A stretch of 64,000 bases of DNA from Crenothrix polyspora (GTDB lineage: Bacteria > Pseudomonadota > Gammaproteobacteria > Methylococcales > Methylomonadaceae), in contig NZ_FUKI01000079.1 of NCBI RefSeq assembly GCF_900163755.1, forward strand, positions 1 through 64,000. The letters run 5' to 3'. The number at the start of each line of letters is the position of its first letter. The first letter of the stretch is position 1. Below the pieces are notes generated by a model. That model saw only the letters and a program-made list of their open reading frames with translations. It was not told the origin of the DNA and searched no databases. The position numbers and the translations under genes are program-made. Of the stretch, positions 1 through 63,712 are shown piece after piece.

Positions 1-492
1 TCTCGAAATACTCCTACTCATCGGCATTACTTTATAAGCCCGATGAAACCTGGTTTCCTGGGATTAAGCACAGGATAAAACCAGTTTATAAAACACTTAA
101 TTCTTACAAACATCAAGCCCTGTTACGAAAGAGCATCATTCGTTAGCAGCTTAAGGCTTACGCTGTTTAACAATTGAATGCGTGATGGTTTTGCACGGTG
201 GACGGCTTGTCGTTTGGGGTGCAAGAGAAATCGGGTGTCCGGCGTTTTCCAAAAATGGCTTACCAAAGCAGGCTATTTTTGGAAGGCCTTGTGCCTTCAT
301 TTCAACACCACCGGCTGTCGTCGCCGGGAAATGACGGCTCCTTTTGTACGGAATTGACCGTGCCTGAATGACCAGGGTTTGTCTGCCCAACCGTGTACCA
401 AAAACATGCGTCGCCAGTTTATTATTGGGGAAGCTCGGTACGCTGTTTTTATCGGAGGGTCTGTTGCAAGCCTGTTTTAACAAAGAAATACA
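1..492. other. Hairpin-rich non-coding region upstream of radC block
   Basis: I find no convincing gene here. The region is rich in inverted repeats. TGGTTT/AAACCA arms lie at 51-83. A perfect 10-bp stem TTCCAAAAAT (247-256) / ATTTTTGGAA (275-284) is extended by GC pairs. GAAGG/CCTTC lies near 282-297 and CCGGC/GCCGG near 311-327. A 110-codon minus-strand frame (151-483) is open but runs across these hairpins and has no recognisable domain, so I treat it as doubtful. The density of stems suggests a structured transcript or leader. Confidence 0.4.
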
Positions 493-527
493 CCGCCAGC
501 CCAGGGCAATCTGGCCTGGCGGCTTTT
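493..527 (+). terminator. Putative rho-independent terminator
   Basis: CCGCCAG (493-499) pairs with CTGGCGG (516-522), followed by CTTTT. It sits just before the first copy of the pseudoknot RNA element and would insulate the radC unit from upstream transcription. The T-run is short, so this is a moderate call. Confidence 0.5.
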
Positions 528-569
528 GCCTTAATGGCCAAGTCCTGGCTGCTAAGGCAAAAGCAACGC

Positions 570-676
570 TTTTTCACCGTGGTCACTGCGGTTTCAGTGA
601 CACCTTTTGCTATCGCGAGCTTGCAATGCCGATAGCCGATCCCTGTGGGGATTGTCGCAAGCGCCTTCTACTGCTG
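570..676 (+). ncRNA. Pseudoknotted RNA element, copy 1
   Basis: A structured element repeated at 2260-2363. Stem P1 is GTCACTG (582-588) with CAGTGAC (595-601). GCTATC (609-614) pairs with GATAGC (631-636). GCTTGC (619-624) pairs with GCAAGC (657-662), interleaved with the previous stem, which makes an H-type pseudoknot. ATCCC (639-643) pairs with GGGAT (648-652). Three of these stems differ in copy 2 by changes that keep pairing, so selection on RNA structure is likely. It lies directly upstream of the radC leader. It could be the published radC RNA motif, but I cannot verify that here. Confidence 0.7.
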
Positions 677-690
677 TTATTTAACTTTAG

Positions 691-764
691 CCTGTCCGGG
701 ATAACCATTCCCCGTCAGGTGGCTGTGTTGCCCCGGTTTTAACCCATTAAACCTGGAGCAACCC
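691..764 (+). promoter_or_regulatory. Two-hairpin leader A (radC)
   Basis: Hairpin 1 is CCTG (691-694) with CAGG (716-719), plus inner CGGG/CCCG. Hairpin 2 is GTTGC (727-731) with GCAAC (758-762), plus inner GGTTT (735-739) with AAACC (749-753). The Shine-Dalgarno GGAG (755-758) lies in the 3' part of hairpin 2, six bases before the ATG, so opening this hairpin could control translation. Confidence 0.65.
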
Positions 765-1238
765 ATGTTATTCATTCAAATTTTACCCGGTCAATACCAG
801 CCTGCACATAACGATGATGTCATTGCTGAGGCGACCCATATTTATAACCAGTACCTGGATCGCGGCACGTCGTTGTCGAGTCCCATTGAAGCGGGGAAAT
901 ACATCAAACTCAAGCTCATCGCGTATGAGTACGAGGTTTTCATGGTGCTGTTCCTGGATAACCAACACCGGATCATCAGTTGTGATGAGCTGTTCAGGGG
1001 CACGATCAATGCGGCCAACGTCTACCCCAGGGAAGTCGTCAAGGCGGCCCTTTTGCACAACGCGGCGGCGGTGATTTTGGCACACAACCATCCGTCCGGC
1101 ATTTCTGAAGCCAGCCAGGCCGACATCAGTATTACCGAAAAACTGAAATCGGCACTGGATTTAGTCGATATTACGGTGCTGGACCATTTGGTGTGTGGTA
1201 GCGATGTGTATTCTTTAAAAGAACATGGCTATTTGTAG
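765..1238 (+). CDS. radC: RadC family JAB/MPN-domain protein
   Basis: A 157-residue protein made almost entirely of the RadC/JAMM domain. The metal-binding signature is clear: HNHPSG with H107 and H109, then S117 and D120 in the usual spacing, and an upstream acidic residue at E75. The N-terminal helix-hairpin-helix part of chromosomal RadC (about 220 residues) is absent, which is typical of the short RadC proteins on ICEs and plasmids. Their biochemical role is unproven; a DNA-processing role is inferred from association with mobile elements. The ATG follows GGAG in leader A. It is the first gene of a unit with the next two genes, each of which has its own leader. Confidence 0.92.
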   Translation: MLFIQILPGQYQPAHNDDVIAEATHIYNQYLDRGTSLSSPIEAGKYIKLKLIAYEYEVFMVLFLDNQHRIISCDELFRGTINAANVYPREVVKAALLHNAAAVILAHNHPSGISEASQADISITEKLKSALDLVDITVLDHLVCGSDVYSLKEHGYL

Positions 1239-1291
1239 CGTTTTAACAGCCAGCTTTGACTTGATGATCTGATTATACTTTTACAACTTAA

Positions 1292-1359
1292 CCTTGCCGG
1301 GGACACAGTTCCCCGTTAGGCGGATTGTGTTGCCTCGGCTTTAACCGAGGGCAACACTA
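1292..1359 (+). promoter_or_regulatory. Two-hairpin leader B
   Basis: Hairpin 1 has CCT (1292-1294)/AGG (1318-1320) and CGGGGA (1298-1303)/TCCCCG (1310-1315). Hairpin 2 is nearly perfect: GTGTTGCCTCGG (1327-1338) against CCGAGGGCAACAC (1345-1357), with one bulged G. The Shine-Dalgarno GAGGG is buried inside the stem, so translation of the next gene should be off unless the hairpin opens. Confidence 0.7.
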
Positions 1360-1827
1360 ATGACAAACGACACACAAACACCAGAAGGTCTGGTGCTGTT
1401 TTTAACTTGGGACACTTTTGGCATCACCCAACACCAGGCTCAGTTTCTGGTTGAAAATGGGCAAGCCGCCGATGAAGACGAAGGCTTTCGCATGGCCTGT
1501 GAAGACAGTGACCTGGTCACTTTGGAATGGGATTTTATGCTGGCCGAGTTGACTGAGAAAATGCTGGCAATCAATGCAGGTGGGCATTGGCAGGGCGAAG
1601 TTATCAACTTCGGTTGGAACAACCGTCAGGGTTTTACCGAATTTGTTGCCGATAATGGCCGCGATTTTTTAGCCAATGTCCTGCCGAAAACCGACTGCAC
1701 ATTCCACATTTATATTGAAGACGGATGTCGTTTTAAGATTCAAAACTTTCACCATGACTCGCCAACCGGCAATGAATGGTACACGCTTACACCTTTAACC
1801 CCCGCGCTGCACGAAGCCGCAGCGTAA
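1360..1827 (+). CDS. Hypothetical protein of the radC block
   Basis: A 155-residue, acidic, soluble-looking protein with no signal peptide or membrane segment. I do not recognise a domain. It is rich in aromatic and acidic residues (LVLFLTWDTFG near the N-terminus, NEWYTLTPLTP near the C-terminus). It starts with ATG three bases after the Shine-Dalgarno-sequestering hairpin of leader B, which fixes the start. It lies 121 bp after radC and 80 bp before the next small gene. Shared leaders suggest co-regulation with radC, so an accessory role in plasmid/ICE establishment is possible but inferred. Confidence 0.75.
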   Translation: MTNDTQTPEGLVLFLTWDTFGITQHQAQFLVENGQAADEDEGFRMACEDSDLVTLEWDFMLAELTEKMLAINAGGHWQGEVINFGWNNRQGFTEFVADNGRDFLANVLPKTDCTFHIYIEDGCRFKIQNFHHDSPTGNEWYTLTPLTPALHEAAA

Positions 1828-1841
1828 AACTTTAACTGAAA

Positions 1842-1907
1842 CCTTGCCGGGGATGCCTTTCCCCGTCAGGTGGATTGTGCTGCCCCGGCCTTAATCCGGA
1901 GCAGCAC
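1842..1907 (+). promoter_or_regulatory. Two-hairpin leader C
   Basis: Hairpin 1: CCT/AGG and CGGGGA (1848-1853)/TCCCCG (1860-1865). Hairpin 2: GTGCTGC (1877-1883)/GCAGCAC (1901-1907) and CCGG (1885-1888)/CCGG (1896-1899). Against leaders B and D the stem changes T to C on the left and A to G on the right, a compensatory change. The GGAG is inside the stem and the ATG follows immediately. Confidence 0.7.
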
Positions 1908-2120
1908 ATGGCAACACGATATGTCAGTAAATTCTTCCCGCTTGGTGACGGCAAAAAAGCCGGGCGATGGGTAGGCAACCATGATCCAAGAAGTTACCGG
2001 CCACCGCGTGGGGTTTCAGCGGTGGCTGAACTGGTTGAATTTCACCCGGTCACCCAGCGTTATTTAGGTGAGTCACAGTGGTGGATGTTTTTACTGCCCG
2101 ACCCCGTTAATAATGGGTAG
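1908..2120 (+). CDS. Small hypothetical protein of the radC block
   Basis: A 70-residue basic/aromatic protein (MATRYVSKFFPLGDG start, WWMFLLPDP near the end) with no domain I recognise. I chose the ATG at 1908 rather than a GTG further upstream because the upstream start would lie inside the leader hairpin, whereas this ATG sits directly after it with GGAG at six bases. It is the third gene after radC and is followed by a terminator at 2181-2206, so it probably ends this transcription unit. Confidence 0.65.
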   Translation: MATRYVSKFFPLGDGKKAGRWVGNHDPRSYRPPRGVSAVAELVEFHPVTQRYLGESQWWMFLLPDPVNNG

Positions 2121-2180
2121 GGTTTAGGGTGACGGTTGGGTGATGTTCCATTGCTTGGCGGCCGTCGTGAATTTAACCTT

Positions 2181-2206
2181 AGCTCCTGTTGTTTAGGGAG
2201 CTTTTT
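2181..2206 (+). terminator. Rho-independent terminator after radC unit
   Basis: AGCTCC (2181-2186) pairs with GGAGCT (2197-2202), followed by a run of Ts. It separates the radC unit from the second pseudoknot element and its gene. Confidence 0.7.
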
Positions 2207-2259
2207 CGAGTGCCGGTGTACACCACCGGTATTGGTAAAAGCATCTTTGATGCAACCGG

Positions 2260-2363
2260 CTTTACCCGTGGTTACTGCGTATTCAGTAACACCTTTTGCT
2301 ATCGCGAGCCTGCACTGCCGATAGCCGGTTCCCGTGGGAATCGTTGCAGGCGTTTTCTACTTT
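2260..2363 (+). ncRNA. Pseudoknotted RNA element, copy 2
   Basis: Second copy of the element at 570-676. P1 is GTTACTG (2271-2277)/CAGTAAC (2284-2290). GCTATC (2298-2303)/GATAGC (2320-2325) is unchanged. The crossing stem is GCCTGC (2308-2313)/GCAGGC (2346-2351). The inner hairpin is TTCCC (2329-2333)/GGGAA (2336-2340). Three stems carry compensatory substitutions relative to copy 1. Like copy 1 it runs straight into a two-hairpin leader. Confidence 0.7.
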
Positions 2364-2381
2364 GCTTTTATTTAACTTTAA

Positions 2382-2448
2382 CCTGACGGGCTAAATAATC
2401 CCCATTAGGGTTTTGTGTTGCCCCGTTTTTAACCTTTGGAGCAACACC
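2382..2448 (+). promoter_or_regulatory. Two-hairpin leader D
   Basis: Hairpin 1 is weaker here (CCT/AGG with GGG 2388-2390/CCC 2401-2403). Hairpin 2 is GTGTTGC (2415-2421)/GCAACAC (2441-2447), with GGAG (2438-2441) at the 3' arm and the ATG at 2449. Confidence 0.6.
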
Positions 2449-2904
2449 ATGACCACTGAACTTACTACTGCAATTCTTTCAACTCCCCAAGGCGCTGGAT
2501 CAAACCCCGCCCTTGATGATGACGAAAAACAGCCCAGACGTTTAACATCTGAGCAATTAACCCATGAACTGCGCCAGTACACCGGCAGTGAAAACTGGTA
2601 TCGGCATGGCCTTAACAGGAAAATGCACTATACCGACGGCATCAAGTTCTTTGCTGAAAATGGCGGGGAACAAGGCGCTTATTGGTTGCTGGATCTGATT
2701 GCCACTGACACTTGGCAGTTATTAAAAAAAGAGGCGTTTTTGATGGTCAGTATTACCGTCAAAGACAATAAGGCCGATTGTGTCGTCGATGATGGCAATG
2801 GCCGAGTTATCAAAACCAGCCACATCACTTACACCGACCTTCAGGCCGGTATCTGGAAGTTTTACCTGACCGGCGATATTTTGCTGTTACCCGGCGAATA
2901 TTGA
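2449..2904 (+). CDS. Hypothetical protein of the radC block
   Basis: A 151-residue soluble protein that I cannot assign to a family. The middle contains YWLLDLIATDTWQLLKK and the C-terminus LTGDILLLPGEY. The pattern of a short disordered N-terminus followed by a mixed alpha/beta region resembles a DUF6876-type small plasmid/ICE protein, but this is only an impression. The ATG at 2449 is preferred over an upstream GTG that lies in the leader. It is a single-gene unit: pseudoknot element and leader upstream, terminator at 2936-2962 downstream. Confidence 0.75.
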   Translation: MTTELTTAILSTPQGAGSNPALDDDEKQPRRLTSEQLTHELRQYTGSENWYRHGLNRKMHYTDGIKFFAENGGEQGAYWLLDLIATDTWQLLKKEAFLMVSITVKDNKADCVVDDGNGRVIKTSHITYTDLQAGIWKFYLTGDILLLPGEY

Positions 2905-2935
2905 TTTTTTAGTTGCACCACACTTTTACCTGTTT

Positions 2936-2962
2936 AGCCTCTGACATGTCAGGGGCTTTTTT
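2936..2962 (+). terminator. Rho-independent terminator
   Basis: AGCCTCTGAC pairs with GTCAGGGGCT (one wobble), followed by TTTTTT. It ends the unit of the gene at 2449-2904. Confidence 0.75.
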
Positions 2963-3024
2963 ACCCAGTGCATTAACCTCGCAGTGCTTGAAAAAACTGT
3001 GGGGTTGAGACGCGCTTTTTACTA

Positions 3025-3098
3025 CCCGCCGGGAACAAACTTCCCTGCGGGATTGTTTTGTCTCCCGGTATTCATTTTAAAATCTGGAGATTAAACCA
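3025..3098 (+). promoter_or_regulatory. Two-hairpin leader E
   Basis: Hairpin 1 is CCCGC (3025-3029)/GCGGG (3047-3051) and GGGAA (3031-3035)/TTCCC (3041-3045). Hairpin 2 pairs TCTCC (3061-3065) with GGAGA (3086-3090), which contains the Shine-Dalgarno. The primary sequence differs from leaders A-D but the arrangement is the same. Confidence 0.55.
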
Positions 3099-4712
3099 AT
3101 GAACAAAATAGCGATGAAAGTGAACCAAGCCAATCTGGTGAAAAGTTTGAAATACAGTTTCACCAATAAGACGAACGTGTTAAACGAGCTCATGCAAAAT
3201 GCTCGTCGTGCCAAGGCAACCCAGGTTGTGTTTGAATTTGCCCCCGAAACCCAAATCCTTCGGGTGACCGATGATGGCTGTGGAATCGATTCCATTGCAA
3301 CATTGCTGACCGTCGCAGAATCCGGTTGGGATGCTGAGGTAATGGCAATCGAAAATCCCTTTGGGCTAGGTTTTTTATCTGCGCTGTTTGCGTGCAGTCA
3401 CATCACGGTTGTCAGCAAAAGCGGCAGTCTGTGTTGTGCTACGGCGGATATCTTGTCGTTCAAACCGGTTGCTGTTAAGCCGGTGCTGGACTGGGATGGC
3501 ATGACGACGATCACTTTAACTGGGGTTGAGCTGGAACTGGAACGCATCGACAGCATTTTGCAAAATGTGGCGCGTGGTTTTCCGGTTCCGGTGATACTTA
3601 ACGGTAAGGTTCTGGATCGGAAACATGCACTGGATTCAGGCCTTATGTTTATAGACACGGCAATCGGATCGGTGTATTTGTCGGGTGTGGATAGGCCGGA
3701 TGGTGTACATAACGAGTTTGAGGTGTATTTACAAGGCTTGCCTGTGTACAGCTCTTACAGTTATTGCCAGCACTGGTTTTCAACACGACACCGGCATGTC
3801 ATCCATCTGGATTCGGCCCGTTTTTATGCACGGCTACCGGATCGCGACAAGCTAATTGATGAAATTGATGTGGTCGCTCGGATAAAGGCTATTTTGACAG
3901 CGGAACTTGAGCGCCATTTTGTGGATCTTAAAGCGAAACTGCCTGCGGAAGACTTCATCCTGTTTTACGAGATGCTGCGCCATTGGCACCTATTGGCACT
4001 GCTCAATGATGTGCCGGTGGTGCCCAGGGAAGCCTTGTTAACCATCAATGATTATCCGGTATGTAATACGGAAATCTACACAGACTTTGTGTCCATGCCC
4101 GATAACGCCATGACCCGTGCAGAGATTGAGGCAGGTGAAGTGGTGTCCATGGGTGATGACATAGCGACCGATGGTGCCGCCCGCAACCTGTTTGCCTGGA
4201 AACGGGGCAGCCTGGTTTATAACGGCGGGCTGGACAGTGGCCATTGGATACATGCGCTGGTGCGAAATCTTAAGGATGAACCGCTGTCGCTTGAGCTGGT
4301 GGATGAAACCCACGCTGCCCAGTTTCAAGGTGATTGGGTTTGGGTAGGTGTGCGCTTTTGCGAAGCCTACCGGATTCGGATCGGTGATGATTGTGTTGAA
4401 ATCAGCGACGATGCCTGTTACTTGGGCAGCGAAAACGAGGAGACCGTGATTGTACCGAAGAGTGATGCGTCGGGCTATGTCCTCAAGCAAATTTCAACGT
4501 ACCGGAATGAGCATGACGATTTTCAGGAATCAGCGCACGAGGCGGATATGGCGGCTTTTGCGTCATTCGTGGTGGCCAATACCGCGAACGATCCTGCGGA
4601 TGCCCTGCAACGGTTGTTGCCGGTTTTTGCAGGTTGTCCGTCTTTGTATGATAAGTCGTTTGTCGTCAACATTAATGCTGAAGGCCATGTGGCTTCGGTT
4701 GTTGCTGCTTGA
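3099..4712 (+). CDS. GHKL-type (HSP90/MutL-like) ATPase-domain protein
   Basis: A 537-residue protein. The N-terminal ~130 residues carry a Bergerat ATP-binding fold: N-box with E30 and N34 (ELMQNARRAKA), G1 motif DDGCGI around residues 58-63, and G2 lid motif NPFGLGF around 86-92. The rest has no domain I recognise. Similar GHKL proteins occur in mobile elements and some defence systems, often with unknown partners. It appears to be a stand-alone gene with its own structured leader (E). It is followed by a terminator-like hairpin at 4793-4817, next to which an IS has inserted. The ATPase fold is confident; the biological role is unknown. Confidence 0.85.
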   Translation: MNKIAMKVNQANLVKSLKYSFTNKTNVLNELMQNARRAKATQVVFEFAPETQILRVTDDGCGIDSIATLLTVAESGWDAEVMAIENPFGLGFLSALFACSHITVVSKSGSLCCATADILSFKPVAVKPVLDWDGMTTITLTGVELELERIDSILQNVARGFPVPVILNGKVLDRKHALDSGLMFIDTAIGSVYLSGVDRPDGVHNEFEVYLQGLPVYSSYSYCQHWFSTRHRHVIHLDSARFYARLPDRDKLIDEIDVVARIKAILTAELERHFVDLKAKLPAEDFILFYEMLRHWHLLALLNDVPVVPREALLTINDYPVCNTEIYTDFVSMPDNAMTRAEIEAGEVVSMGDDIATDGAARNLFAWKRGSLVYNGGLDSGHWIHALVRNLKDEPLSLELVDETHAAQFQGDWVWVGVRFCEAYRIRIGDDCVEISDDACYLGSENEETVIVPKSDASGYVLKQISTYRNEHDDFQESAHEADMAAFASFVVANTANDPADALQRLLPVFAGCPSLYDKSFVVNINAEGHVASVVAA

Positions 4713-4823: not shown

Positions 4824-6032
4824 TGAGTACCGTACACTTTTTAAATCAGGGCATAGTTAGCTAATTTCATGGCGTTACCCTTAAGTCTATGCTAAATGGG
4901 GGTAGCGCTAAGTTACTGGACAATAACCTTTTTAATAGGCGACACCCCAATTTGAAGAGGCTCAAATCACACCGTTTCTTACGATGGATCAATATCTGCC
5001 AGCCATTTTGTAAAGCATACCCTCCCAGATAGATCATCCAAATGTAAGCCAAGGCTGCTGCAATTAGTAATCGAGAAACTCGCTTTGGGCATTTTAGGCC
5101 GCTTTTATGCAAATTGAATCCTCGGCTTTTCATAACAGAGTTTCAATTCTGAAACGTTGGCAATACCAAAAATGTGCTTCATATGCCGTTTCAAAACTCG
5201 TTACCCAGAATATGGGATTTTTATGCGAGCTTCCCCACCATGCTACGGCATTGACAATTGCGCTACGCTTATCGGTAAACTCAAGTCCTCCAATGTAGAC
5301 TGGCTTACCACCCCGATTAGGGCATACTTCAGGCAGCTGAAAACGTTCGCCTTCTTCGTATAAGGCAGCATCCTTACTGGTACGGCACACATAATGCCAG
5401 CCGAAACCTTTGATTGTGGTTAACCATCCTGGGCCATCAAATTCCCCATCTCCGAGACAGATAACATCTGCACCTATCGGTATGAGGGATTGCACCGCCC
5501 GGATCAGTTCAATGTGCATCGCCTCAGGAAAGTGGCCTTTTTTTCCTTTGCGAGTCATCCATAACACCGGAATAGCCCTTCCTTTATAGAGCACGCTAAC
5601 CATTAAGGTGATACAGCCACTTCCTGTCGTACTGCCATCGATAATAAGAACTATCGTTTGCCGCGCAAGCGCCTTCAATATTTGTTTGATGTAAGGCAGG
5701 TAATACAGGTCAATATCAACCGACTCATTCTTCAGCCAGCGACGCAACTGCATGATCTTACTTTCTTCTTGGCCTGCTTTGGGTATTTCGCTGGCAACTT
5801 CAGATAGCTTTACCTCGCCACTTTGGACAATCCCACAAATAAATCCCACCATGACATTCAGGTGTCTTGCTTGGTTACCTTTCACATCAAAACCCAACAC
5901 TTTGATTAATGCTTGATGTATTGCTCTATAAACCTTATGACAATTTGGCATGGTGAATTTGCATAAAAATTCACTAAATTATCAAACTGTTAAAAAATCG
6001 CAAGGGGCTTTCAAAAAGTGTACGGTAGTGAA
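4824..6032. mobile_element. IS4-family-type insertion sequence, decayed
   Basis: About 1.2 kb, bounded by imperfect inverted repeats sharing TACCGTACACTTTTT (left near 4828, right near 6013-6027) and flanked by a 9-bp direct repeat AACTCGGTT (4815-4823 and 6033-6041). The clean target duplication shows insertion in place. The transposase is broken by a frameshift, so the element is probably immobile unless helped in trans. Confidence 0.8.
4867..5951 (-). pseudogene. IS4-type transposase, frameshifted
   Basis: Two minus-strand frames make one transposase: residues 1-273 (5951 to 5130) and a C-terminal part of up to 88 residues (5133 to 4867). The first carries the DDE aspartates in IIDGSTTGSG and LGDGEFDGPGW and ends at YCQRFRIETLL. 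The second resumes with KSRGFNLHKSG and LLIAAALAYIW, the usual continuation in this family. The expected few residues between them (typically containing SDQ) are missing, so a small out-of-frame deletion near 5130 inactivates the gene just after the catalytic glutamate. Confidence 0.8.
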
Positions 6033-9044: not shown

Positions 9045-10235
9045 AAATAGCAACCCAACCAACAGGATTTAAGATAATAGCGGCATAAACAATGATCAAG
9101 GATGAGGAAGAAATGGATTTTTTAGATATTTTTGGCCAGCTCGACGATCCCCGGATTGAACGAAAAAAGTTGCATCCGATGCCCGAAATACTACTGCTGA
9201 CGTTATGCGCAGTGATCTGCGGGGCAGAAAGCTGGGATGACATAGAGATGTTTGGCAAATCGAAGTTGATGTTTTTACGCCAGTATCTGCCGTATGAGTC
9301 CGGTGTTCCGAGCGACGACACCTTGCGGCGGTTTTTCCGTGCCATTGATACCACCCAGTTCCAACACCTTTTTATCCAATGGGTTAAGGAATGGCTCAGC
9401 CCTGAAGTGGCGGGCAAGGTGGTGGCGATTGATGGCAAAACGCTACGCGGCAGCCATGAGGGCGGGCAGTCACCCATACACTTAGTGTCAGCCTTTGCCA
9501 GCGAAGCGGGAATCGTATTAGGACAGGTTAAAACCAGTGAGAAATCCAACGAGATCACCGCCATTCCTGAGCTATTGGAATGGTTGGATGTACGCGGTGC
9601 CATCGTCACCATTGATGCCATGGGCTGCCAAAAGGCTATTGCCGAGAAAATCATCGATAAAGGCGGCGATTACTTGTTGGCACTCAAAGGCAATCAAAGC
9701 GGCCTACATGATGATGTGCGCCTGCATTTTGAACAGCCCGCCCCCACGTCGTTGACCCGGATGAGCCACGCAGAAACCATTGATAAAGGTCATGGGCGAA
9801 TTGAAGTCCGGCAGTGCCGATTGAGTACAGACATTGAATGGCTCAAGGAGCGCCATCCTGAGTGGAAAAATTTAAGCAGTATTATCGCGATTGACAGTGA
9901 GCGGCTCATCGGCGACACGACAACCCGGGAAACCCGATACTTTATTAGCAGCTCGCAGGCACCGGCAGCTCGGATGCTGGCCGCCGTGCGTTTGCACTGG
10001 GGCATAGAAAACCAGCTCCATTGGGTACTGGACATGTCGTTCGGTGAAGACCAAAGCCGCATACGCAAAGACAATGCCCCCGCCAATGTCGCCATTATCC
10101 GCCATGCGGCCTTGAACATGATCAGGCAAGCTCCAAAGAAACGCATGAGTGTCAAACGTATGCGCAAGGCGGCTGGTTGGGATGACTCTCTTTTAACCGA
10201 GGTTTTGGCTCAGGTATTTTAATGAGGTAGCCCTG
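9028..10235. mobile_element. ISAs1-family insertion sequence
   Basis: A 1208-bp element with ends CAGGGCTCCCTCATT (9028-9042) and AATGAGGTAGCCCTG (10221-10235), which are inverted repeats with one mismatch. A 10-bp duplication GATTCACCCA flanks it (9018-9027 and 10236-10245). The intact transposase and perfect duplication suggest a recent insertion. It splits the arsenic operon. Confidence 0.93.
9113..10222 (+). CDS. ISAs1-family DDE transposase
   Basis: A 369-residue transposase (H-repeat-associated type). The N-terminus MDFLDIFGQLDDPRIERKK is the usual family start, and ATG 9113 has a GAGGAAG just upstream, so I prefer it to an earlier ATG at 9092. Catalytic motifs: AIDGKTLRGS (first D), IVTIDAMGCQ (second D), and WGIENQLHWVLDMSFGED near the C-terminus with the glutamate. 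Length and motifs are complete, so the element is probably active. Confidence 0.93.
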   Translation: MDFLDIFGQLDDPRIERKKLHPMPEILLLTLCAVICGAESWDDIEMFGKSKLMFLRQYLPYESGVPSDDTLRRFFRAIDTTQFQHLFIQWVKEWLSPEVAGKVVAIDGKTLRGSHEGGQSPIHLVSAFASEAGIVLGQVKTSEKSNEITAIPELLEWLDVRGAIVTIDAMGCQKAIAEKIIDKGGDYLLALKGNQSGLHDDVRLHFEQPAPTSLTRMSHAETIDKGHGRIEVRQCRLSTDIEWLKERHPEWKNLSSIIAIDSERLIGDTTTRETRYFISSSQAPAARMLAAVRLHWGIENQLHWVLDMSFGEDQSRIRKDNAPANVAIIRHAALNMIRQAPKKRMSVKRMRKAAGWDDSLLTEVLAQVF

Positions 10236-63157: not shown

Positions 63158-63712
63158 ATGCCTCGCTTAATCTTTATAAAATACGTGCCCTTTTGGGTAT
63201 TAATAGTCATCACCTGTTTGTTGTGTGGGTGTACCAACACCATCCACCCACGATATGGCCAGGCCACAGGCCGATGGCTACCGGCAACTAATGACGTTGG
63301 GTGGCAACGTCATCCGTCTGCTTTAGAAACCCCCACCTATAAATCAGGACAACGCTGGCTACAAGTAGGCCGTTACCACACAGTCAATGCCGTGCCGACC
63401 AGGGAACAGCAGGCACTGTTACAGGTCATCATCGAAGTCACTTTGCCGGAGGAGGTGGGGGATATCCAGTCGGCAGTGGATTATTTATTGCTGCGTAGCG
63501 GTTACCAATTTACCGCCTTGCCCCAGGCCTCCGATGTCCAGCAATTATTGCAAAAACCCATCCCAGCCATCCACCGCCATTTAGGCCCGATGACCTTGGA
63601 AAGTGCGTTACAGACCTTGTCAGGTGCACCGTTTCAACTGACCGTCGATCCGGTACACCGCCAAGTAGGGTATACGCTACCTGCCAACATTGCCCGCCAG
63701 GTGACTCCATGA
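63158..63712 (+). CDS. pilL: PilL-like lipoprotein of PFGI-1-class conjugation module
   Basis: A 184-residue exported protein. The signal LIVITCLLCGC ends in a lipobox (C24). The mature protein begins with a linker (HPRYGQATGRWLPATND) and has the PilL N-terminal domain features: VITL-like VIIEVTLPEEVGDIQSAVDY, LLLRSGYQFTAL and GPMTLESALQTLSGAPFQLTVD, a secretin-N0/STN-like fold. In ICEs of the PFGI-1/pKLC102 class it starts a conserved conjugation gene cluster. The leader upstream and the 4-base overlap with the next gene indicate an operon. Confidence 0.82.
   Translation: MPRLIFIKYVPFWVLIVITCLLCGCTNTIHPRYGQATGRWLPATNDVGWQRHPSALETPTYKSGQRWLQVGRYHTVNAVPTREQQALLQVIIEVTLPEEVGDIQSAVDYLLLRSGYQFTALPQASDVQQLLQKPIPAIHRHLGPMTLESALQTLSGAPFQLTVDPVHRQVGYTLPANIARQVTP

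What the first reader, a model, noticed from the sequence alone, without database searches (positions are those of the whole stretch)
570..2363. Two copies of a ~105-nt RNA with an H-type pseudoknot and compensatory changes
Copies at 570-676 and 2260-2363 share three hairpins plus an interleaved stem. GTCACTG/CAGTGAC becomes GTTACTG/CAGTAAC, GCTTGC/GCAAGC becomes GCCTGC/GCAGGC, and ATCCC/GGGAT becomes TTCCC/GGGAA, while the crossing stem GCTATC/GATAGC is kept. Both copies follow a terminator and precede a leader, so each marks the start of a transcription unit; internal genes lack it.
Basis: partly seen in the sequence, partly recalled or inferred. Interest (0 to 1): 0.85.

Follow-up and report, generated by a model that had tools for sequence, protein, structure and literature searches.

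The report
Pseudoknot RNA leader of conjugative elements
Two structured RNA elements near the window's start are real and belong to a diverse family of pseudoknot leader RNAs, not matched by the Rfam library, that sit in front of gene clusters of bacterial conjugative elements, in the same place as the known but unexplained 'radC RNA', and may help transcription run through built-in stop signals.

Summary
Both ~100-nt copies (574-672, 2263-2361; 'element A') carry hairpin P1 and an H-type pseudoknot: P2, with P3's 5' strand in its loop, hairpin P4, then P3's 3' strand. Relatives occur in 16 of 201 genomes of the order and 12 of 369 of the class, own genome included, up to 8 per genome. In 34 aligned copies 93.6% of cells pair and 25 of 29 pairs change on both sides; P3, left out of the search models, holds alone. 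No Rfam family fits the window. At the homologous place in PFGI-1-type plasmids Rfam finds radC RNA or STAXI (5 of 10 loci), and 7 of 7 radC RNAs show the same P2-P4-P3 core: a sibling of radC RNA, not a member as Rfam defines it. Two further modules lie around it: an upstream hairpin using the terminator's U-tract, and a leader before the genes whose segment 3 can pair with segment 1 or the Shine-Dalgarno segment (0 of 10,000 permutations). Best mechanism: a cis-acting read-through (antitermination) RNA like put, EAR or Tn916 canT; inferred, 0.4. 'Marks the start of a transcription unit' is only partly supported.

The parts
574..672 (+). Element A, copy 1: P1 582-588/595-601 (bulged G581 between 579-580 and 582), P2 609-615/630-636, P4 637-643/648-654, P3 619-624/657-662 (pseudoknot)
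   Evidence: covariation in 34 copies
2263..2361 (+). Element A, copy 2: P1 2271-2277/2284-2290, P2 2298-2304/2319-2325, P4 2326-2332/2337-2343, P3 2308-2314/2345-2351
493..527 (+). Terminator-like hairpin with U-tract before copy 1 (by eye and in the fold; not listed by the scan)
522..564 (+). H0 hairpin before copy 1: 522-540 pairs with 546-564; its 5' arm holds the terminator's U-tract
2181..2206 (+). Terminator-like hairpin with U-tract before copy 2 (by eye; not listed by the scan)
2200..2242 (+). H0 hairpin before copy 2: 2200-2218 pairs with 2221-2242 (by eye and in the fold; the strict rule misses it)
690..767 (+). Leader B of radC
1291..1362 (+). Leader B of the gene at 1360, no element A
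1841..1910 (+). Leader B of the gene at 1908, no element A
2382..2451 (+). Leader B of the DUF6876 gene
3024..3101 (+). Leader B of the ATPase gene, no element A found
765..1238 (+). radC-like gene (PF04002, E 2.5e-43)
1360..1827 (+). gene of unknown family (no Pfam or NCBIfam match)
1908..2120 (+). short gene of unknown family (no Pfam or NCBIfam match)
2449..2904 (+). DUF6876 gene (PF21781, E 1.3e-33)
3099..4712 (+). HATPase_c_3 gene (PF13589, E 1e-7)

Best explanation
Element A is a cis-acting leader RNA of PFGI-1-type integrative conjugative elements (ICEs), a sibling of radC RNA. It is made as part of the ICE messenger, mostly after a terminator inside a longer transcript. Most likely it acts as a processive antitermination RNA of the put/EAR/canT kind: P1 (bulged G, conserved loop) and the rigid P2-P4-P3 pseudoknot dock on the transcription complex, alone or with a protein, and let it pass the intrinsic terminators between the gene blocks and the terminator-like form of leader B before the genes. 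Shown here: the RNA structure, its repetition, its place, and the neighbouring modules H0 and leader B. Inferred: that it acts on the elongating polymerase, and which partner it uses. The identity part (cis-acting RNA, radC-type) I hold at about 0.9; the number below is for the mechanism.
For: Covariation. Wobble pairs lie on the coding strand more than their mirror image would: G-U 51 against A-C 21. Same-strand ORF with ATG within 400 nt in 58 of 72 copies. radC RNA or STAXI at the homologous place in 5 of 10 plasmid loci; 7 of 7 radC RNAs share the core. H0, whose 5' arm is the terminator's U-tract, can only form in RNA that has crossed the terminator (42 of 79 copies by a strict rule). No promoter excess at H0 copies (0 of 36, or 1 of 38 after regrouping; 1.6 expected for 36), while other sites have 8 of 48 against 2.3 expected (7 of 46 after the regrouping). 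In L062 terminator-like sites lie 26 on the elements' strand and 3 on the other. In 20 of 38 leaders the segment1:segment3 hairpin is followed by at least 5 U in 8 (control 5%). Precedents: cis-acting RNA canT of the ICE Tn916 (abstract), conAn2 RNA of pLS20 and the remark that terminators inside an operon point to such a system (passages), put (passages).
Against: No functional or expression data. In L056, with 8 copies, terminator-like sites show little strand bias (18 to 15). A block of the window (3099) has no copy. P1 alone occurs in phage contigs directly before ribosome-binding sites, which fits a leader-binding role better. Promoters other than consensus sigma70 would be missed. P3 alone shows no wobble preference (6 G-U, 7 A-C). 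H0 is not seen by the strict rule in 37 of 79 copies.
Confidence: 0.4

Rival explanations
1. Element A is a protein-bound 5' leader that controls stability or translation of each gene block: P1 is the binding hairpin of an element-encoded RNA-binding protein, H0 is cut by a double-strand RNase, the pseudoknot then shields the new 5' end, and A works beside the leader B translational switch.
For: P1 is the most sequence-conserved part, with a bulged G and a conserved loop. P1 alone lies right before SD-ATG in 13 of 15 viral contigs with the pattern (by eye). Leader B shows Shine-Dalgarno sequestering complementarity that coevolves.
Against: Does not explain why copies lie behind terminators and are missing before internal genes that have the same leader B. 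No partner protein was identified.
Confidence: 0.33
2. It works as a single-stranded DNA promoter or signal (Frpo-like) on the transferred strand during conjugation; a single-stranded DNA role was also considered for STAXI by its discoverers.
For: Repeated structured sites upstream of radC-type and other early-type genes; Frpo precedent on the F plasmid (passages); the STAXI remark (passage).
Against: Wobble pairs favour the coding strand (51 G-U against 21 A-C, p 0.0005; 93 against 22 on a model-fitted alignment), whereas Frpo-type transcription would have the structure on the template strand. P4 loops are UNCG in 24 of 68. I did not search the stems for promoter boxes in folded form, nor locate oriT.
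Confidence: 0.08
3. It is the 5' part of, or is processed into, a separate small RNA acting in trans.
For: STAXI is typed as an sRNA gene in Rfam. Copies are compact.
Against: Position and strand are tied to a following gene (58 of 72); no consistent terminator follows the element (sequences).
Confidence: 0.08
4. It is a metabolite or ion riboswitch aptamer with leader B as expression platform.
For: Pseudoknotted domain followed by a switchable leader.
Against: Leader B also occurs without A (1291-1362, 1841-1910), and outside P1 the letters vary widely, unlike a ligand pocket.
Confidence: 0.04
5. Chance or recent duplication without function.
For: Only two copies in the window; single-copy fold z-scores near -1.
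Against: Covariation, 0 of 500 shuffles; distant genomes keep the topology with other letters.
Confidence: 0.01

Closest known systems
radC RNA motif (Rfam RF01754)
   Same: Same place: upstream of STY4534/DUF3577 and other genes of PFGI-1-type elements, followed by leader B; several per element (three in 6.4 kb of pKLC102); same P2-P4-P3 pseudoknot core in 7 of 7 sites.
   Different: No Rfam match of element A even at lax thresholds; the A model does not find radC RNAs. radC RNA has an outer stem round its first hairpin and two further hairpins before the core that the simple copies of A lack; P1 letters differ.
STAXI RNA (Rfam RF01728)
   Same: Found at the homologous place in one plasmid (Duffyella); built round pseudoknots, often with UUCG loops (passage).
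   Different: STAXI repeats its pseudoknot two or three times in tandem (passage); A has one core per copy and no Rfam match to STAXI.
Cis-acting antiterminator RNAs: HK022 put, EAR, pLS20 conAn2, Tn916 canT
   Same: Structured RNA near the head of long gene sets that contain intrinsic terminators; [quoted passage not shown] passages).
   Different: No activity has been shown for A; no sequence kinship was tested; here the element recurs after terminators instead of standing once at the head.
Frpo single-stranded DNA promoters
   Same: Repeated structured sites in front of early genes of a conjugative plasmid (passages).
   Different: Wobble pairs of A favour the coding strand; no promoter function known.

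Membership tests
radC RNA (RF01754) | Match to the Rfam model | tested here: not met
   Nothing at gathering score in the window; no radC match up to E 10 in 1-3200, nor up to E 5 or 10 in other A loci
radC RNA (RF01754) | Upstream of radC/DUF3577-type genes of proteobacterial mobile elements | tested here: met
radC RNA (RF01754) | 3' pseudoknot core P2-P4-P3 (as found here; Rfam's consensus line does not pair P2 or P3 this way) | tested here: met
   62 of 72 copies of A, 7 of 7 radC RNAs
radC RNA (RF01754) | Two hairpins between the first hairpin and the core | tested here: not met
   Absent in the window copies and the simple copies; some variants carry one extra hairpin or pseudoknot there, by eye
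STAXI (RF01728) | Match to the Rfam model | tested here: not met
   one search is empty but its control rang nowhere
STAXI (RF01728) | Pseudoknot repeated two or three times in tandem | tested here: not met
   One core per copy; the window copies are 1.7 kb apart
Processive antiterminator RNA (put/EAR/canT kind) | Cis-acting read-through of terminators | not testable with these tools
   needs reporters; circumstantial evidence
Frpo-type ssDNA promoter | Structure on the template strand with promoter boxes in the stem | tested here: inconclusive
   Wobble bias points to the coding strand; promoter boxes within folded stems not tested
Rfam families in general | Any family at gathering score in the window | tested here: not met
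   0 matches over 64 kb

The most novel reading that the evidence does not exclude
PFGI-1-type ICEs run an element-wide RNA programme: a head promoter, terminators between gene blocks, a re-loading antiterminator RNA (element A, radC RNA and STAXI as interchangeable versions) after terminators, and before the genes a four-segment leader whose segment1:segment3 form is at once terminator and antisequestor, so that only polymerase modified by A yields translatable mRNA. This would be a Gram-negative counterpart of conAn and canT with a built-in translational lock, and would give radC RNA and STAXI a function.
Probability: 0.2. Interest if true: 0.85.

Novelty: new variant of a known kind. Interest (0 to 1): 0.62.

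Why it matters
radC RNA and STAXI were listed in 2010 without an established function (passages). This work finds a third version, invisible to Rfam, in the same place of the same elements, shows that radC RNA shares its pseudoknot core, and adds two modules (hairpin H0 and the leader B switch) that turn 'structured RNA of unknown role' into a testable model of how these large conjugative elements may hold back or read through their genes. The model can be tested in a plain reporter assay.

Tried and rejected
Rfam as a direct answer: no match at gathering score in the window, and up to E 10 in 1-3200 only RydC (2315-2359, overlapping copy 2; 18.2 bits against a gathering score of 48, E 5.6) and a human lncRNA model, both taken as chance. 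LOOT RNA: one antisense match below its cut-off in L141 (34 of 46.4 bits); 0 of 16 genomes over the cut-off. STAXI as the family itself: one search gave nothing but its control rang nowhere; one search then showed STAXI at the homologous place in another element.

DNA similarity searches of A against plasmids and of phage P1 leaders against phages and plasmids gave no homologous site. A sigma70 promoter within 22 nt of each copy: 7 of 79 at 8/12 or better, control 7.4%, so no excess. The first leader parse was wrong for six leaders, which were re-parsed by hand; the numbers are not used. A 'DUF3577 RNA motif' of Weinberg et al. 2017 is recalled by name only: searches found no text on it, and in the ten DUF3577 plasmid loci no Rfam family other than radC and STAXI scored in the leaders themselves (psRNA2 scored further upstream in L152), so its relation to A is untested. 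P1 as a copy of a host RNA: the pattern hits 6 of 369 genomes, 19 matches, 18 of them coinciding with model hits, reversed control 0.

Rows dropped or regrouped: of 78 model matches, 72 were used; left out were five with letters identical to another match and one short match (L072:9974). One search used 73 distinct rows, 64 with a complete core, 46 of them for P1. One search left out three copies by name. In one search the H0 group was typed by hand: two copies that flags (L070_11390, L027_621) were put under 'other' and three flagged extra copies (L091, L095, L097) were not included; L027_621 has a 9/12 match, so the honest figure is 1 of 38. The DUF3577 label covers 9 copies; four further DUF3577-leading copies among the added loci (L086, L087, L088, L090) were not labelled, none of them with H0.

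Full report
Observation. The two copies exist where stated. They are 81% identical over 110 nt. Each has a 5' hairpin P1, then a pseudoknot in which P2 encloses the 5' strand of P3, hairpin P4 follows P2 directly, and P3 closes after P4 (coordinates in 'parts', checked). The folding energy of one copy alone says little (z about -1), so the test is comparison.

Relatives. The window lies on contig C90 of G000. A DNA search of 101 genomes (own included) found matches in 4. A pattern search of named genomes found one contig, of Crenothrix polyspora RSM_CP2, 3533 bases; the match in G001, a genome of the window's genus, lies on a contig of the same length, so the host is probably a Crenothrix (inference). 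A covariance model built from six copies, with P1, P2 and P4 but not P3, found the element in 16 of 201 genomes of the order, with up to 8 matches in one genome, often clustered within 20 kb, and in 9 of 369 of the class. A second model from 34 copies found 12 of 369 of the class and, in a sample of 398 genomes of the phylum, only the window's own. These counts include the own genome; searches over 40 genomes used strict filters, so they are lower bounds. The family is scattered and rare.

Covariation. On a MAFFT alignment of 34 copies, 93.6% of 975 cells are standard pairs, 25 of 29 pairs change on both sides, and 0 of 500 shuffles reach any measure; versions with the 3' partner slid by 1 to 3 columns give 31.7 to 49.6%. 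P3 alone: 95.1%, all 6 pairs with two-sided changes, 0 of 500. Copies from other orders (L042, L072, L073, L074) keep the topology with different letters. Scored copy by copy against own shuffles (60 each), 62 of 72 are at p<=0.05; among the ten misses are a truncated copy (L057:11717) and copies outside the script's limits. Wobble pairs on the coding strand: G-U 51, A-C 21, p 0.0005; 93 against 22 on the model-fitted alignment, which leans that way; P3 by itself shows no preference (6 against 7). P4 loops are UNCG in 24 of 68. This favours an RNA of the coding strand over a DNA hairpin of the template strand.

What it stands in front of. Of 72 copies, 58 have an ATG ORF of at least 60 aa with a Shine-Dalgarno-like site within 400 nt on the same strand (I did not run the opposite strand as a control). 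The ORFs include recurring families: a group of 13 with DUF3577 and DUF3275, 9 of DUF932 type, 7 with the window's DUF6876 gene, 6 with the window's RadC gene (Pfam names of representatives). The window carries a PFGI-1-class ICE gene at 63158 (TIGR03748). DUF3577 was found in 5 of 114 genomes sampled; four of the five (G226, G232, G266, G295) are among the element-bearing genomes, the fifth (G302) is not.

The known relatives. No Rfam family fits the window or the A loci scanned: 4 of them and 13 up to E 5, and the five DUF3577 loci up to E 10, where one weak antisense LOOT match was the only one I followed. But in ten plasmid loci chosen by hand through their DUF3577/STY4534 gene, out of 62 matching records of which 40 were listed (fetched), Rfam finds radC RNA in four (pKLC102, Enterobacter, Stutzerimonas, Tistrella; seven sites) and STAXI in one (Duffyella), at the place where A lies in the elements studied here. 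The A model finds none of these (one match, 12.9 bits, on the other strand inside the gene). The radC sequences contain the same P2-P4-P3 core, 7 of 7, 0 of 200 shuffles each; Rfam's consensus line does not pair it this way, and RF01754 is named in a paper among families for which another method proposes more covarying pairs (passage). The Comamonas locus, L143 (G302) and the STAXI locus give weaker support (2, 2 and 1 of 100 shuffles at least as good); Shewanella, Vibrio and two Burkholderia loci give none (24 to 59 of 100). Hence: A is a sibling of radC RNA, not a member as Rfam defines it.

The cassette. (a) H0: before many copies the U-tract of the preceding terminator-like hairpin forms the 5' arm of a long hairpin with an A-rich 3' arm, often with a G.G mismatch. 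A strict rule finds it in 42 of 79 copies, and in 1 of the 9 labelled DUF3577-leading copies; 41 of 69 upstream regions fold with z < -2, a measure that includes the terminator hairpin itself. (b) Leader B, before genes with or without A: segment 3 is complementary to segment 1 and to the Shine-Dalgarno segment 4. In 38 leaders the cis pairing is stronger than in all of 10,000 permutations for 1:3 (-14.48 against -11.50 kcal/mol) and 3:4 (-14.38 against -11.52), not for 1:4 (-3.66 against -3.55); with one leader per genome or record (27) z is -9.2, -6.5 and -0.1. Segments were delimited by script for 32 leaders and by hand for 6 of the 38 and for the 11 added ones. In 20 of 38 the 1:3 hairpin is followed by at least 5 U in 8 (control 5%). 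Thus 1:3 may be an antisequestor, a terminator, or both; which one is not decided here. (c) Promoters: 0 of 36 H0 copies as grouped have a 9/12 sigma70 match within 85 nt (1.6 expected), 1 of 38 after correcting the grouping; 8 of 48 other sites do (2.3 expected), 7 of 46 after the correction. In L056 the best promoter-like match of the 20 kb (10/12) lies about 200 nt before the first of eight copies; promoter-like sites are fewer than in shuffles there (11 against 23.4) and in L062 (1 against 4.1).

Mechanism. RNA that forms H0 must have crossed the terminator; terminator-like sites stand between co-directional blocks without an excess of recognisable promoters; and half of the tested leaders hold a terminator-like hairpin. 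A structured RNA in such gene sets resembles put, conAn2 and canT. I therefore put processive read-through first (0.4). Against it: no functional data; little strand bias of terminator-like sites in L056 (18 to 15), although L062 has 26 to 3; a block in the window without A; and P1 hairpins alone next to ribosome-binding sites in viral contigs, which favour the rival of a protein-bound stability or translation element (0.33).

Literature. Seen: passages of PMC2864571 (STAXI section and table), PMC9378689 (put), PMC8955417 (conAn), PMC9849209 (Frpo), PMC7657543; abstract and outline of PMC11658703 (canT). In the listings of the searches I saw no paper that gives radC RNA a function or describes element A; I read none of the other listed papers, and that library lacks most subscription journals.

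Noticed in passing
690-767, 1291-1362, 1841-1910, 2382-2451, 3024-3101; also L143, L146-L155: Leader B: a four-segment leader before the genes of these elements, with coevolving complementarity 1:3 and 3:4 (Shine-Dalgarno), more widespread than element A.
   Followed up: yes
522-564 and 2200-2242; many loci: H0: a hairpin whose 5' arm is the U-tract of the preceding terminator, with covarying arms across elements.
   Followed up: partly
L101, L102, L103, L105, L106, L108-L115: P1 hairpin alone, without the pseudoknot, directly before SD-ATG in 13 of 15 viral contigs with the pattern (by eye; most share one near-identical leader); L104 and L107 are chance-like, without matching stems.
   Followed up: partly
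L118:5705-5727: A P1-like hairpin 2 nt upstream of a tRNA-Arg gene (5628-5702, minus strand) in a viral contig.
   Followed up: no
2958-3098: The ATPase gene has terminator-like site and leader but no element A, whereas the related ATPase gene in L056 (13968) has one: possible loss in this element.
   Followed up: no
L147, L151, L146, L153 (radC RNA sites): radC RNA's 3' part is a P2-P4-P3 pseudoknot in 7 of 7 sites, which Rfam's consensus line does not pair.
   Followed up: yes
L056, L061:4076, L062, L063, L024, L039: Some variants carry a further small pseudoknot (CGAGG...CCTCG with CTCC/GGAG) between P1 and P2; seen by eye, not tested.
   Followed up: no
L148, L149, L150, L152, L155: Other structured-looking stretches at the same place before DUF3577 genes in Shewanella, Burkholderia, Comamonas and Vibrio plasmids, without radC or STAXI match: perhaps further versions.
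   Followed up: partly
L152:2472-2640: Rfam psRNA2 (146 bits) next to an IS481 transposase gene in a Burkholderia glumae plasmid.
   Followed up: no
L141:162-271: Below-cut-off match to LOOT RNA (34 of 46.4 bits) on the strand opposite to an element A copy, overlapping its upstream stretch; LOOT did not recur in 16 genomes.
   Followed up: yes
5130-5951, 9092-10222: Genes that look like transposases (by eye) inside the ICE stretch, so the cluster is interrupted downstream of 4712.
   Followed up: no
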